Notes under the pieces: model-generated
What the model was told of the DNA's origin: nothing
The model's database searches: none
Seen by the model: the letters and a program-made list of their open reading frames with translations, nothing else
Part shown: piece by piece, positions 60,100 to 64,000 of the stretch
How positions within the stretch are numbered: position 1 is the stretch's first letter
How the letters are laid out: each line of letters opens with the position of its first letter
Assembly (NCBI GenBank): GCA_020735665.1
Contig: CP085928.1
Location: forward strand, 882,001 to 946,000
Length of the DNA stretch: 64,000 nt
Reading direction: 5' to 3'
Source: Lachnospiraceae bacterium GAM79
Lineage (GTDB): Bacteria > Bacillota > Clostridia > Lachnospirales > Lachnospiraceae
Program-made: the position numbers and the translations under genes

Positions 60100-60105
60100 T
60101 AATTA

Positions 60106-60141
60106 GGGGAAAATTCCAAATATTGGGTTTTCCCCTTTTTT
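60106..60141 (+). terminator. Terminator after ppdK
   Basis: Stem GGGGAAAA / TTTTCCCC with a 14-base loop, then TTTTTT. Confidence 0.9.
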
Positions 60142-60153
60142 ATTGGGTTTTCT

Positions 60154-60196
60154 AAGGATTCTATCTCTTACTAAGAGGTAGAGTCCTTTTATTTTA
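60154..60196 (+). terminator. Second hairpin terminator after ppdK
   Basis: A 16-bp stem AAGGATTCTATCTCTT / AAGAGGTAGAGTCCTT (two G-U pairs) with a tiny loop, then TTATTTTA. It could terminate transcription in either direction. Confidence 0.75.
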
Positions 60197-60225: not shown

Positions 60226-60485
60226 ATGAACAACACATGGTATTTGAATCAGTAGATCACAGGACATTTTACAGAGAAAAATTAGCGAGAGCGAGATACA
60301 GAGACAGTTATCACAAGTCACTCATTTATATCCTTGGCATATCTGAGGACACGAGACGGCATTGCGATGAAATCTACGTGAAGAAAGTACTGAATTTATG
60401 GTATGTTAGATTGTCATTTAACTTTTTATTATGGCTTATAAGGAAACAAAGAGCAATACCTTCTACTGCAAAGCATTTGATTTAG
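60226..60485 (+). pseudogene. Probable DUF6075-family remnant
   Basis: Reading from ATG 60237, the first 45 residues (VFESVDHRTFYREKLARAR ... YHKSLIYILGISEDTRRH) resemble the start of DUF6075 proteins. After DEIYVKK the family sequence is lost until VRLSFNF, suggesting an internal deletion or frameshift; the frame ends at 60485. The best ribosome binding site (AAGGAGG at 60210) instead fits ATG 60226 in another frame, which gives only MNNTWYLNQ before a stop. The family call is from memory and moderate. Confidence 0.4.
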
Positions 60486-60542: not shown

Positions 60543-61292
60543 ATGGGAGTGCTTAGAGTAGGAATTTGTGATGATGGGTCGGCAATCTGTTCGGAAATTG
60601 AAAGGATCGTTAAAGAATATGGGAAGAAGCATGACTTGAGACTTGATACAGAGATATGGAGTACGGGAGAGGCACTGGTGGATTATCTTGAGGATGGAAA
60701 TGCGATTGATTTATTATTCTTGGATATTGATTTGATTACGACCAGCGGTGTAGATATAGGACAGTATATTCGGCATAGACTGAATAATTATAGCATGAAG
60801 ATTGTGTTTATATCTGCAAATACAACATATGCAATGAGCCTGTTTGATATAATGCCGATGAATTTTCTTGTGAAGCCGCTTGTAAAATCTAAGGTAGAGG
60901 AATGTCTTGATTTGGCTGTTATGTTTCTCGTAAAAGAAGAGAAGGTGTTTCAATGTAAAGTGGCTGGTAAAACTCATTATATACCATTTAGATCTATCCT
61001 TTATTTTGAAAGTGATGGCAGAAAAATCAGACTTGTCACGGAGAAAAAACAAAAAAATGGTGGCTTAGATACAAAAGTGGATGTGTATGAATATTACAGA
61101 AAGATAAAAGAGGTTGCTCAGGAAATTCTGTCGGACGAATCTTTCTTGCAAGTTCATAGGTCTTATATCGTCCAGATTGCTTACATACAAAAATATGAAT
61201 ATACACAGATACTAATGATGGACGGTACACAGATCCCTGTTAGTCAAAATTTTCGGAAAGAAGTACGGAGCAAGATGCTGGAGAGGGGATGA
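60543..61292 (+). CDS. LytTR response regulator, AgrA-like
   Basis: A 249-residue response regulator. The receiver domain has GICDDGSAICSEIERIV, phospho-acceptor Asp61 (LLFLDIDLI) and Lys in NFLVKPLVKSKV. The C-terminal LytTR domain (about 140-249) has YIPFRSILYFESDGRKIRLV, FLQVHRSYIVQIAYIQKYE and GTQIPVSQNFRKEV, the pattern of AgrA/VirR/ComE regulators that bind paired 9-bp repeats. AGGGGA is 6 bases before the ATG at 60543. It pairs with the kinase 6 bases downstream; likely targets are the repeats before agrD at 63134. Confidence 0.92.
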   Translation: MGVLRVGICDDGSAICSEIERIVKEYGKKHDLRLDTEIWSTGEALVDYLEDGNAIDLLFLDIDLITTSGVDIGQYIRHRLNNYSMKIVFISANTTYAMSLFDIMPMNFLVKPLVKSKVEECLDLAVMFLVKEEKVFQCKVAGKTHYIPFRSILYFESDGRKIRLVTEKKQKNGGLDTKVDVYEYYRKIKEVAQEILSDESFLQVHRSYIVQIAYIQKYEYTQILMMDGTQIPVSQNFRKEVRSKMLERG

Positions 61293-61298
61293 AGAAAA

Positions 61299-62540
61299 AT
61301 GTACACGGCAGTATATTTAATGTGCAACATGTTCAGAATATATCTGATTAAGCATCTTACAGACATGTTTTTTCAGGGAGAGAATCCGGATAAGAAACAT
61401 GTTGTAGGAGTATGTATTGTTTTTTATGCGGTAAACAGCGCGTTGTTTATCTGTCTTAATATATCATTGATTAATCTTATATGTAATGTTCTCGGCATAG
61501 GTGCGCTCGTGTGCGTGTATTCCAGAAACAGAAAATATGTGATTTTTATTATTGTAATACTTACTATTGTGTGCATGGGCTGTGATATGCTTGCTACAAG
61601 TCTGCTGACTCCGGCATACAAATCAGGAGATGCACTGGATATGCTGACATTCGTCATGGTCGATATGATTATGTTTGTGTTTATGTGTCTTCTGAGAAGG
61701 ATAATGCAGAGCCGGAATGAGCAACAGATAGTGCCGAGCGTGGCTCTGATAATTGTGCCGATTATCAGTATATGTATACTTTTGTATATGGCTTACATGA
61801 AGCATTATATATCAGGCGACTTTATAGCAGTAGGATTGGGACTTTTATGTATAAATTTCTTGGTGCTGTATTTGTATAATATGCTTCTTGAATCCGCTCA
61901 GGAAAAATATGAGAACCAAATTCTCAGGCAGTATGTCAAGGAATATTCAAACCAGTTGGACATTATTCTTGAATCAGAACAAAAAGTAAGACGCATGCGC
62001 CATGATATCAGGAATCATTTGTCAGAGATACAGCTTCTGACCATGCAGAATAAGCGCGATGAGGTTTTAAAATACATAGAAAGCATGACGGACTATATGC
62101 AGAATTCAAGGGCAATTTCAGAATCTGGCAATATTGAGACAGACAGCCTTTTGAATTATATGCTTGGGTTGGCAAAGAAGGACGGAATTCATGTTGAAAC
62201 GGACATATGTCTGCCGGAAGAATTGCGTAATTCGTTTGAGTTCAACATTGTTCTGGGCAATCTGCTTGACAATGCAGTCAGGGCGGCAAAGTCCAGTGAA
62301 GAAAAATACCTCTATGTTAGAATCAATATGGACAAAGGGACATTGAGGATTCTGGTAAAGAACAGCTACAGCGGTAAACTGCGTAAATCAGGGAGACATT
62401 TCCTTACCACCAAAGATGATTCGTATAATCATGGCATGGGTTTACAGAGTGTACAGGATGTTGTGAATCAAAATAATGGTGAGATACAGTTTGAAGCTAC
62501 TGAAAATACTTTCATAGTCAGAGTTATATTGTTCAATTAA
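61299..62540 (+). CDS. GHKL sensor histidine kinase, AgrC-like
   Basis: A 413-residue receptor kinase. The first 205 residues contain about six membrane segments with short loops, the AgrC topology for sensing a cyclic peptide outside the cell. The dimerisation helix carries the phospho-acceptor in KVRRMRHDIRNHLSEIQLL (probably His235). The ATPase has VLGNLLDNAVRAAKS (N box, about 318-332), GMGLQSVQDVV and ends at VRVILFN, the HPK10/GHKL type. It follows the AgrA-like regulator by 6 bases. Confidence 0.92.
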   Translation: MYTAVYLMCNMFRIYLIKHLTDMFFQGENPDKKHVVGVCIVFYAVNSALFICLNISLINLICNVLGIGALVCVYSRNRKYVIFIIVILTIVCMGCDMLATSLLTPAYKSGDALDMLTFVMVDMIMFVFMCLLRRIMQSRNEQQIVPSVALIIVPIISICILLYMAYMKHYISGDFIAVGLGLLCINFLVLYLYNMLLESAQEKYENQILRQYVKEYSNQLDIILESEQKVRRMRHDIRNHLSEIQLLTMQNKRDEVLKYIESMTDYMQNSRAISESGNIETDSLLNYMLGLAKKDGIHVETDICLPEELRNSFEFNIVLGNLLDNAVRAAKSSEEKYLYVRINMDKGTLRILVKNSYSGKLRKSGRHFLTTKDDSYNHGMGLQSVQDVVNQNNGEIQFEATENTFIVRVILFN

Positions 62541-62623
62541 CAATGATGTCTGCCAAGCTGCTTGGGGTTATGCCTGCAGCTTCTCTTAATTTCTTGATAC
62601 GCTCAGGTATGTCAATGACTATT
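62534..62623 (-). pseudogene. 5' fragment of an XRE regulator gene (decayed duplicate)
   Basis: On the minus strand, 29 codons read IVIDIPERIKKLREAAGITP then SSLADIIVN and stop. They match the first residues of the gene at 62992 (MVMDISERIRELREVIGITQ). Both start codons are changed (ATG to ATA and ATT). Similarity continues upstream into the leader to about 62685. The fragment abuts and overlaps the 3' end of the kinase gene by 7 bases. Confidence 0.75.
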
Positions 62624-62686
62624 TTGTTTCTATAAAAGGTATGATTATGCTGTGTAAGGTTTCATGTCATTTCCTAGTATATTCTG

Positions 62687-62992
62687 TTAATTGTTTTCTT
62701 TTGAATTCTCCGCAGAAAAATAATGGACGAGACGGAGAATAATATCTACGCCTTCTGGACTTACTCCTGATATTTCAATTAGCTGCAATTCATTTCTTCC
62801 AAGTAAATAGTCTGTAGATACATGAAAAAAATCAGCCAAATCAACAAGAGTGTCTATAGAGGGTTTTGATGTACCCATTTTCCATGCGTTTACTGCTGAG
62901 CGAGATATGTTAAGTGCGCTTGCCAAATTACTCTGGGTTATACCGATGACTTCTCTCAATTCCCTGATACGTTCAGATATGTCCATTACCAT
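62687..62992 (-). CDS. XRE-family transcriptional regulator within the agr locus
   Basis: A 101-residue Cro/CI-type regulator. The helix-turn-helix is ITQSNLASALNISRSAVNAW, followed by KPSIDTLVDLADFFHVSTDYLLG; the last 35 residues form a short helical tail. GAGGA is 7 bases before the ATG at 62992. The gene is divergent from agrD-agrB and convergent with the kinase gene; it shares the 256-bp intergenic region that holds the LytTR sites. A role as local repressor or modulator of the agr genes is inferred from position. Confidence 0.88.
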   Translation of the reverse strand: MVMDISERIRELREVIGITQSNLASALNISRSAVNAWKMGTSKPSIDTLVDLADFFHVSTDYLLGRNELQLIEISGVSPEGVDIILRLVHYFSAENSKENN

Positions 62993-63068
62993 TTTTATTC
63001 CTCACAAAAAATACGATTATGTCATGTTACATGTTTGTCCTTTCATTAGTATATTCAATTCAAAGTCA

Positions 63069-63097
63069 ACTATAATTATCTTATTTGATAGTTACAA
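63069..63097 (-). promoter_or_regulatory. Candidate promoter of the XRE regulator gene
   Basis: On the minus strand: TTGTAA, 17-bp spacer, TATAGT, 77 bp before the start codon. It lies 37 bp from the nearest LytTR repeat. Confidence 0.4.
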
Positions 63098-63133
63098 ATG
63101 ACAAAAAGAACCGGATTTTGGCAAAAAAACACG

Positions 63134-63163
63134 AGTTATGACAAAAAAGCTGTTAGTTATGAC
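63134..63163 (+). promoter_or_regulatory. LytTR-type (AgrA-like) binding site: two 9-bp direct repeats
   Basis: AGTTATGAC occurs at 63134-63142 and exactly again at 63155-63163, a 21-bp period with a 12-bp spacer. LytTR regulators such as AgrA and ComE bind 9-bp direct repeats with this spacing; the core AGTTATG is close to AGTTAAG of the AgrA site. The second repeat ends about 7 bp before the -35 position of the agrD promoter, which itself lacks a good -35, as expected for an activated promoter. Confidence 0.75.
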
Positions 63164-63192
63164 ATATGGCGAATTTTAAGAAAAAAATGTGC

Positions 63193-63198
63193 TATGAT
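63193..63198 (+). promoter_or_regulatory. -10 box of the agrDB promoter
   Basis: TATGAT, 51 bp upstream of the agrD start. No recognisable -35 lies 17 bp upstream (CGAATT), which fits dependence on the LytTR regulator bound at 63134-63163. Confidence 0.6.
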
Positions 63199-63248
63199 TT
63201 AGACGGCTAATATCAAAATAGCAAAATATATCACAGGAGGGATGCAGT

Positions 63249-63380
63249 ATGAACAAGGCAAAGAAGCTCGTAAACAAGATGGCAAAGAAATCGGCGGAGA
63301 AAGCAGCTAACTCAGCTTGCTGTTTCTGGGCATATCAGCCGAAAGAGCCAAAGGCAGTCAAGAAGCTGCGCAAATTCTAA
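63249..63380 (+). CDS. agrD: AgrD-like cyclic lactone autoinducer peptide precursor
   Basis: A 43-codon gene. The N-terminus (MNKAKKLVNKMAKKSAEKAA) is a basic amphipathic helix. The core is NSACCFWA (residues 21-28), and the C-terminus YQPKEPKAVKKLRKF carries the conserved QPxEPK motif that follows the signal in clostridial AgrD precursors. By analogy, AgrB would cut after Ala28 and close a five-residue thiolactone on Cys24 (ring CCFWA). AGGAGG is 8 bases before the ATG. agrB starts 6 bases after the stop. The receptor is presumably the kinase at 61299. Confidence 0.9.
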   Translation: MNKAKKLVNKMAKKSAEKAANSACCFWAYQPKEPKAVKKLRKF

Positions 63381-63386
63381 GAGCCG

Positions 63387-63959
63387 ATGAAGACATTGCA
63401 GGAATATGTAACCAACGAATATGACTCCGATGAGGAGAAGGAGATCATAGCCTATGGGCTTGAGCGTATCAGGGAGAACGTGCTTGCCTTTGGATTTACA
63501 GTTCTTGTCGGCTTCTGCTACGGTGATGTCCTCTCGGGCGTTCTGCTGTGGGTGTTTCTTTATCCCATAAGGAGCAGCGCGGGAGGATATCATGCGCAGA
63601 CCAGATGGGGCTGCAGAGTTATGTCGGTTTCGCTTCTGCTTGCAGCTTATACTGCGGTATATGCCGTAAACAGGCTGGCATACGGACAGATGATACTGCT
63701 TGGGCTTCTGCTCTGCGCGGTGCTGACTCTATGGCTGCTTGCTCCGATTGGCACGGAGAATAAGCCTCTCGATGATATCGAGCATAGAATTTATCAAAAA
63801 AGGACAAGGATTATAGTTCTGGTTGAAACGATATTAGCCGTGTTTACACTGTATGAGGGAATATCGGTCATATATCTGCCGATAGTTATGGCATTTTTAA
63901 TTTCATCAGCACTGCTTGTGATGGGATGTATTAAGCTGAGAAAAAATAAGGGAAAGTAA
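63387..63959 (+). CDS. agrB: Accessory gene regulator protein AgrB
   Basis: A 190-residue membrane endopeptidase that cuts and cyclises AgrD. The catalytic pair is in RSSAGGYHAQTRWGCRVMS: His69 and Cys76, seven residues apart as in known AgrB proteins. About five or six membrane segments follow, with PLDDIEHRIYQKRTR in a cytoplasmic loop, also a family feature. The ribosome binding site is within the end of agrD, so the two are coupled. The remaining 41 bases of the window hold nothing supportable. Confidence 0.95.
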   Translation: MKTLQEYVTNEYDSDEEKEIIAYGLERIRENVLAFGFTVLVGFCYGDVLSGVLLWVFLYPIRSSAGGYHAQTRWGCRVMSVSLLLAAYTAVYAVNRLAYGQMILLGLLLCAVLTLWLLAPIGTENKPLDDIEHRIYQKRTRIIVLVETILAVFTLYEGISVIYLPIVMAFLISSALLVMGCIKLRKNKGK

Positions 63960-64000
63960 ACATCAATTATATATTTTGCAACAAATGAAAGGAAAAAAAT

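What the first reader, a model, noticed from the sequence alone, without database searches (positions are those of the whole stretch)
60543..63959. Complete agr-type peptide quorum-sensing locus with an embedded XRE regulator
All four agr parts are visible: LytTR regulator, GHKL kinase with AgrC topology, AgrD-like precursor and AgrB. The arrangement is unusual: regulator and kinase come first, a divergent XRE regulator is inserted, then agrD-agrB. The locus lies after terminators and a gene remnant, so it may be an inserted module. The specific signal and the XRE link look undescribed.
Basis: partly seen in the sequence, partly recalled or inferred. Interest (0 to 1): 0.85.

Follow-up and report, generated by a model that had tools for sequence, protein, structure and literature searches.

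The report
Quorum-sensing module upstream of toxin operon
A gut-type bacterium carries a complete peptide "head-count" signalling module whose genes appear to run straight on into a large toxin-and-immunity operon just past the window's edge, which would make this a toxin weapon switched on by crowding, although no experiment has yet shown it.

Summary
In detail: LytTR regulator, AgrC-like kinase, AgrD (TIGR04223, E 1.3e-14) and AgrB (PF04647, E 2.4e-34), with a divergent XRE gene. The XRE insertion is the odd part.
The main result lies outside the coordinates. Forty-two bases after agrB, same strand and without a terminator, begins a polymorphic-toxin operon: a secreted toroid protein, a lipoprotein-like toxin carrier, two spare C-terminal cassettes (one ending in Ntox35) and three immunity-like genes. 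agrD, agrB and the two big genes share base composition. The agrD promoter has a two-repeat operator enriched in near relatives, absent in more distant ones. The ~15 kb is absent from a same-genus genome.
Best reading: agr drives its own toxin operon. Inferred, not shown. The pairing is rare: 1 of 80 other toxin loci has agr nearby, not clearly above chance.

The parts
60105..60188 (+). two intrinsic-terminator-like hairpins behind ppdK; similarity to same-genus G004 stops just after them (about 60204)
60237..60485 (+). DUF6075 gene remnant at the left end of the island
   Evidence: PF19552 E 3.8e-14 over 47 of 129 profile positions
60543..61292 (+). AgrA-type response regulator, receiver + LytTR
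61299..62540 (+). AgrC-type sensor kinase, membrane part + GHKL ATPase
62551..62684 (-). decayed partial copy of the XRE gene 5' end and its promoter region
   Evidence: local alignment score 80 against 31 for the best of 300 shuffles
62687..62992 (-). XRE-family (HTH_3) regulator, divergent from agrD
   Evidence: nearest relative found 52% identical in G006, no agr gene labelled in the 19 kb around it
63098..63123 (+). two weaker upstream half-sites (ATGACA, TTGGCA), 20 bp apart and in step with the main pair; they overlap a promoter-like site for the XRE gene (63104-63075, minus)
63134..63198 (+). predicted agrDB promoter: AGTTATGACA, 11 bp, AGTTATGACA, 23+5 bp, TATGAT (extended -10 TGTGCTATGAT)
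   Evidence: GTTATGACA-N11..13-GTTATGACA occurs once in the genome
63249..63380 (+). agrD, signal precursor of 43 aa
   Evidence: TIGR04223 E 1.3e-14; aligned with 16 relatives
63318..63332 (+). predicted ring of the signal peptide, Cys24-Cys25-Phe26-Trp27-Ala28, closed from the conserved Cys24
   Evidence: alignment plus the 5-residue thiolactone ring of C. perfringens (PMC7492741, passages); inference
63387..63959 (+). agrB, processing and export endopeptidase
   Evidence: PF04647 E 2.4e-34; H69/C76 invariant
63960..64000 (+). first 41 nt of the 42-nt gap (63960-64001) to the secreted toroid gene. Beyond the window, in continued window coordinates: toroid gene 64002-67232, toxin carrier 67234-70461, immunity-like 70483-71013, cassette 2 71089-72237, immunity-like 72234-72704, cassette 3 72786-73754, immunity-like 73733-74302

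Best explanation
A self-contained, horizontally variable island in which an agr-type quorum-sensing circuit drives its own polymorphic-toxin operon. AgrB trims and cyclises AgrD to a five-residue thiolactone peptide (predicted ring CCFWA) and exports it; at high cell density the peptide activates the AgrC-type kinase; the LytTR regulator binds the repeat pair at 63134-63164 and fires the promoter at 63193-63198; transcription runs through agrD, agrB, the secreted toroid protein and the toxin carrier with its immunity gene. The toxin is displayed or released against neighbours, and kin carry the immunity genes. Recombination with the downstream cassettes can swap the toxin tip. The XRE protein, facing agrD across the shared control region, probably acts as a local brake. 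Shown here: the genes, their order, the promoter pattern, shared composition, cassettes, and absence in a relative. Inferred: signal structure, regulator binding, read-through, killing, tip swapping and the XRE role.
For: Same strand; 42-nt gap agrB to toroid gene and 1 nt toroid to toxin gene; no structure in the agrB-toroid gap (fold z +0.86). GC3 of agrD 0.61, agrB 0.50, toroid 0.51, toxin carrier 0.50, against RR 0.36, kinase 0.43, cassettes 0.39-0.43, immunity-like genes 0.26-0.29. Repeat pair [AT]TNNNACA at 20-22 bp upstream of agrD in 11 of the 20 nearest agr loci (0.29 expected; pattern chosen after seeing them) and in 3 of 10 held-out loci chosen by regulator similarity (0.20 expected, P 6.6e-4, two of the three from one genus); an extended -10 in one of four allowed forms, also chosen after looking, follows at 22-24 nt in 11 of 15 pairs, the window included. 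S. aureus AgrA binds two direct repeats centred near -60 (PMC4227749, passages); here about -56 from the predicted start. Toxin: 765 bp and 334 bp perfect repeats that run into different tips; Ntox35 E 3.7e-25 in one tip; tip 1 related to the end of a Leptotrichia haemagglutinin (28%, E 6e-9); tails of the family elsewhere match TNT, CdiA_C, EndoU, deaminase and other toxin domains.
Against: No experiment. Linkage of agr with this toxin family is not enriched: 1 of 80 other named toxin loci has AgrB nearby, about 0.33 expected from AgrB density, and the window was picked for its agr. The genome's second toroid-toxin pair has no agr gene in 20 kb and no such repeat pair before it. 10 of 40 agr loci, this one included, have some co-directional gene within 100 bp of agrB, so closeness alone is weak. 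The operator pattern was absent in all 14 tested distant agr loci (one place counted twice), in all 8 tested of a second set and in 7 of 10 held-out ones. A weak 5-pair hairpin with a T-run lies at the end of agrB (63877-63893; z -0.90), and promoter-like matches exist inside the downstream genes, more than in shuffles (43 against 24.4).
Confidence: 0.65

Rival explanations
1. Neighbours by chance: an ordinary agr module and a polymorphic toxin operon share an insertion hotspot, but the toxin operon has its own regulation and agr serves other genes.
For: No enrichment of agr beside this toxin family; the ppdK-CDF site holds different cargo in G004; the toxin pair stands without agr elsewhere; RR and kinase differ in composition from agrDB and toxin genes; promoter-like sites inside the downstream genes.
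Against: 42-nt gap without a terminator, same strand, same GC3 as agrB; of two repeat pairs on the island only the one before agrD has a matching -10.
Confidence: 0.27
2. Decaying or silent locus: the partial XRE copy, DUF6075 remnant and toxin-gene remnant show an island in decay, with agr not signalling.
For: Remnants at 60237-60485, 62551-62684 and L034 10398-10590.
Against: All four agr genes and both large genes are open frames; AgrB His/Cys and the kinase His motif are kept.
Confidence: 0.08
3. The agrD product is itself a bacteriocin-like or interference peptide rather than a self-signal.
For: The gene neighbourhood is antagonistic.
Against: A kinase and LytTR regulator sit beside it in the usual family order, and the promoter has the repeat pair seen in near relatives.
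Confidence: 0.05

Closest known systems
Staphylococcus aureus agr (AgrBDCA)
   Same: AgrB, AgrD, AgrC-type kinase, LytTR regulator; regulator on two direct repeats near -60 of the promoter (PMC4227749, passages)
   Different: order here RR-HK-(XRE)-agrD-agrB; RNAIII not sought; toxin operon directly behind agrB; S. aureus T7SS toxin secretion is tied to Agr as part of a wider circuit (PMC10765036, passage)
Agr-like system of Clostridium perfringens (agrBD with VirS/VirR)
   Same: signal likely a five-residue thiolactone ring; toxin production under Agr control (PMC7492741, passages)
   Different: there the toxin genes are not in the agr operon (recalled); here signal, receptor and toxin lie in one island
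RR-HK-agrD-agrB loci of related genomes (L156-L175 and others)
   Same: gene order, AgrD form and, in the nearer ones, the promoter pattern
   Different: no relative of the XRE protein between kinase and agrD and no toroid/toxin match in the stretches compared
Polymorphic toxins with an inactive transglutaminase domain (Zhang et al. 2012, PMC3482391, passages)
   Same: signal peptide, then a transglutaminase fold with Asp where the catalytic Cys would stand (all five rows that show the place, the window's included; the Cys position is recalled), variable toxin tip
   Different: no RHS match in this protein; the held text of that paper (first 300,000 characters) has no 'quorum' or 'AgrB'
CdiA/Rhs orphan toxin cassettes (listing PMC3150448 and others; rest recalled)
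   Same: tandem C-terminal cassettes with homology to the main gene plus immunity-like genes
   Different: lipoprotein-like carrier of a Gram-positive, not CdiA or Rhs
Bacillus subtilis ComQXPA/Rap-Phr and LXG/Wap toxins (PMC12935306, passages)
   Same: quorum-sensing regulators change expression of such toxins
   Different: global regulators acting on distant toxin genes, other signal type

Membership tests
agr quorum-sensing system | AgrB endopeptidase with catalytic His and Cys | tested here: met
   PF04647 118.7 bits; H69/C76 invariant in 32 of 32 rows
agr quorum-sensing system | AgrD precursor with conserved Cys and C-terminal recognition tail | tested here: met
   TIGR04223 53.9 bits; Cys24 shared by all 17 aligned (17 of 19 found), tail QPKEP
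agr quorum-sensing system | AgrC polytopic GHKL kinase | tested here: met
   HATPase_c_5 E 7.2e-19; 5 hydropathy segments
agr quorum-sensing system | AgrA LytTR regulator | tested here: met
   LytTR E 7.6e-17
agr quorum-sensing system | direct-repeat operator at the agr promoter | tested here: inconclusive
   repeat pair present here and enriched in near relatives, absent in the 14 and 8 more distant loci tested; binding not shown
agr quorum-sensing system | processed cyclic peptide that activates the cognate kinase | not testable with these tools
   needs mass spectrometry and reporter assays
polymorphic toxin system | export signal and conserved N-terminal part with variable C-terminal toxin tips | tested here: met
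   hydrophobic start with lipobox-like LSGC; conserved core; tails with TNT, CdiA_C, EndoU, deaminase etc. among 69 scanned of 76 listed
polymorphic toxin system | extra cassettes sharing sequence with the main gene | tested here: met
   765 bp and 334 bp identical, then divergent tips; Ntox35
polymorphic toxin system | cognate immunity genes | tested here: inconclusive
   three small low-GC genes directly behind the tips, no Pfam family at cut-off; the second copy of the locus has an IFS-like immunity gene just below its cut-off (28.6 of 30 bits)
inactive-transglutaminase RHS toxins | RHS repeats after the transglutaminase domain | tested here: not met
   no RHS match in this protein at E 0.1, so not filed as an RHS toxin

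The most novel reading that the evidence does not exclude
A portable kin-discrimination island: a private cyclic-peptide signal, its receptor, a swappable toxin tip and matching immunity genes travel together, so that the toxin is fired only when enough carriers of the same signal type are present, with the XRE protein holding it off at low density.
Probability: 0.3. Interest if true: 0.82.

Novelty: new variant of a known kind. Interest (0 to 1): 0.6.

Why it matters
Both halves are known kinds; a dedicated agr circuit joined to a cassette-bearing polymorphic toxin in one insertable unit did not come up in the paper searches made (open-licence library only). If it works as read, it gives a simple, testable case of crowd-gated antagonism among Gram-positive gut bacteria, and it predicts that signal type and immunity type are inherited together.

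Tried and rejected
Gene order as the novelty: rejected, since it is the usual order among near relatives. A general link between agr and this toxin family: not supported (the 80 toxin loci hold 1.16 Mb and some are short). The divergent agr in L082 (uncultured Clostridiaceae) lies beside a PT-HINT toxin with a weak Ntox30 match, but in another arrangement; kept as a remark. Close relatives of AgrB in the named genome collection: none confirmed. Toxin relatives in viral contigs: none confirmed. Fold of tip 1: weak model (pLDDT 65), no PDB match at E 0.001. Fold of the toroid protein: 8-sequence model, pLDDT 78, pTM 0.37; its N-terminal part resembles squalene-hopene cyclase, farnesyltransferase and complement toroids (TM to 8pak_B 0.56 by target length); the top-ranked galactosidase matches have TM near 0.1 and were ignored; no function drawn. 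PADLOC: no match for four proteins. XRE operator: only short palindromes. Two weak blastp labels of immunity-like genes near other agr loci (L157, L159, E between 1e-4 and 1e-3; seen, not at the stricter limit) were not followed. Operator test sets: 0 of 14 tested of 27 loci (12 without agrD, 1 too short, one place twice), 0 of 8 tested of 9, 3 of 10 tested of 20.
Full report
What is there. The window is bases 882001-946000 of a 2.96-Mb single-contig genome. I take it for Lachnospiraceae: of five 'same family' genomes whose contigs I could match by length to named records, three are called Lachnospiraceae; one is called Clostridium sp. and one, a metagenome bin, Bacteroidales. At 60543-63959 lie a LytTR response regulator, an AgrC-type GHKL kinase, a divergent XRE gene, agrD and agrB, all confirmed by family models. 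AgrB keeps His69 and Cys76. In the alignment of 17 AgrD (of 19 found) the cysteine shared by all is Cys24; some more distant AgrD have none there. With the five-residue ring of C. perfringens (PMC7492741, passages) this predicts the ring Cys-Cys-Phe-Trp-Ala before Tyr-Gln-Pro-Lys. A parallel with Listeria is recalled only.

Gene order is ordinary, the XRE gene is not. AgrB was searched in 397 genomes of the family; the three best relatives are 33-35% identical. Of the 20 nearest loci fetched, 11 have RR-HK-agrD-agrB in one direction (kinase in two pieces in L165 and L169), L158, L164, L170 and L172 show part of that order, L174 has it with two genes before agrB, and L163, L166, L171 and L175 differ. 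The order also holds in 8 of 9 further loci (the ninth shows agrB only) and in all 10 of 20 regulator-selected loci in which agrD was found (in two of these agrB stands 4-6 kb from the regulator's start). By blastp none has a relative of this XRE protein between kinase and agrD. The XRE protein belongs to a common class: 28 of 40 genomes, the own one included, have a match at E 1e-8; its one close relative (52%) is in G006, with no agr gene labelled in the 19 kb around. A decayed copy of its 5' end and promoter lies at about 62551-62684.

The operon runs on. Just after the window begins a 1076-aa secreted protein (64002-67232 in continued window coordinates) and, 1 nt later, a 1075-aa lipoprotein-like protein with a transglutaminase domain (E 3.1e-12) and two membrane segments before a C-terminal tip (67234-70461). 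The part of this gene ahead of the tip is repeated downstream: 765 bp identical at 71086-71850 and 334 bp identical (more at about 97%) from 72772, each then running into a different tip. The tip of cassette 2 is Ntox35 (E 3.7e-25), elsewhere predicted to be an RNase of the BECR fold (PMC3482391, passages). Tips 1 and 3 are 37% identical, and tip 1 matches the end of a Leptotrichia haemagglutinin at 28% (E 6e-9). Behind each tip stands a small AT-rich gene without a Pfam family, as expected of immunity genes. Whether the cassettes are expressed is unknown; promoter-like matches exist in the repeated part. A remnant of the main gene lies further on.

The toxin family. With a seven-sequence core alignment, 104 relatives were confirmed in the named genome collection and 80 kept, by their titles from Lachnospiraceae and Ruminococcus to Nitrospirae, Desulfuromonadales, Acidobacteriota and Myxococcus. 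A relative of the toroid protein is present in 57 of 92 loci scanned, some of them overlapping. Among 69 toxin tails scanned (of 76 listed), matches include TNT, CdiA_C, EndoU, CDI_toxin_EC869, deaminases, NlpC/P60, Ntox28 and PT-HINT. So this is a polymorphic-toxin family. Its transglutaminase domain has Asp where the catalytic Cys would stand in the five rows that show the place (the position is recalled), which fits the inactive-transglutaminase toxins of Zhang et al., though RHS repeats are missing here. The genome holds a second toroid-toxin pair, at 2,788,923, without agr.

Is agr tied to the toxin? For: same strand, a 42-nt gap with a plausible ribosome site and no hairpin, and GC3 of 0.50-0.61 for agrD, agrB, toroid and toxin against 0.36 and 0.43 for regulator and kinase. 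Against: of the 80 named toxin loci only L082 has AgrB nearby, with about 0.33 expected from AgrB density in 60 relatives (the density comes from a single-protein search, the loci from a profile); as the window was picked for its agr, there is no enrichment to claim. Ten of 40 agr loci, this one included, have some co-directional gene within 100 bp of agrB. A few of these neighbours look secreted, which hints at a wider habit.

The promoter. Upstream of agrD stand two copies of AGTTATGACA 21 bp apart and, 23 bp further, TGTGCTATGAT. The pattern [AT]TNNNACA twice at 20-22 bp was chosen after looking at the 20 nearest loci; it is present in 11 of these 20, 0.29 expected. Other loci: 0 of 14 tested distant agr loci (27 tried, one place counted twice), 0 of 8 tested with regulators 20-25% alike, 3 of 10 tested with regulators at least 33% alike (0.20 expected, P 6.6e-4, two of the three from one genus; 10 further loci dropped because no agrD was found). 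In 11 of 15 pairs, the window's included, an extended -10 in one of four forms chosen after looking follows at 22-24 nt. S. aureus AgrA binds two direct repeats centred near -60 (PMC4227749, passages); here the centre is near -56 from the predicted start. The strict pair occurs once in the genome. On the island a second, looser pair exists at 67409, inside the toxin gene and without such a -10. This supports, without proving, regulator control of agrDB.

The island. In G002, of the same genus, the ppdK and CDF-transporter matches are 217 bp apart; in G004 they stand about 47 kb apart with other cargo; in G001 and G003 no CDF match at E 1e-30 was found. Similarity to G004 ends at window 60204 and resumes at about 75028. 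Gain here or loss there cannot be told, but the site varies in three ways.

Print. Nine paper searches gave one paper holding 'polymorphic toxin', 'agr' and 'autoinducing peptide': a Staphylococcus xylosus study whose passages list agrD and an LXG toxin among associated gene groups, with no such locus in the passages seen. Quorum regulators acting on such toxins from afar are known for B. subtilis (PMC12935306, passages) and touched on for S. aureus (PMC10765036, passages). An Eubacterium rectale study mentions agrB only beside motility genes (PMC7278147, passages). The library lacks most subscription papers, so 'not in print' is limited to these searches.

Verdict. A real and complete agr locus of ordinary order with an extra XRE gene, most likely the control head of a polymorphic-toxin island. 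New variant of a known kind; interest 0.6.

Noticed in passing
window 62551-62684: Decayed partial copy of the XRE gene's 5' end and promoter, beside the intact gene.
   Followed up: partly
G004 C1 1766808-1817357 (L191-L193): The same ppdK-CDF site in a same-genus genome holds about 47 kb of other cargo, including a protein that looks TIR-like and several ATPase-like proteins by eye; no family scan was made.
   Followed up: no
L052 9752-19799: Second toroid-toxin pair of this genome, with three similar 170-aa genes behind it, one of them scanned and like the immunity factor of streptococcal NADase (IFS, just below cut-off).
   Followed up: partly
L002: Second agr locus of the genome, with agrD, agrB and a LytTR-type regulator in another order.
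   Followed up: no
L082 5849-12946: An agr locus divergent from a PT-HINT toxin of the same family (weak Ntox30 match) in an uncultured Clostridiaceae genome.
   Followed up: partly
L156, L164, L168, L198, L200, L253: Other agr loci have, next behind agrB, a gene that looks secreted by eye (gaps 12 to 392 bp), perhaps a habit of agr modules driving a neighbouring secreted protein.
   Followed up: no
toroid protein, L033 6003-9233: Partner protein found beside the toxin in distant bacteria; N-terminal toroid fold like squalene cyclase or the complement toroid; role unknown.
   Followed up: partly
L204: An XRE-like gene stands upstream of the regulator in one other agr locus (28.5% identity).
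   Followed up: no
L157, L159: Weak blastp matches to two of the immunity-like genes near other agr loci.
   Followed up: no
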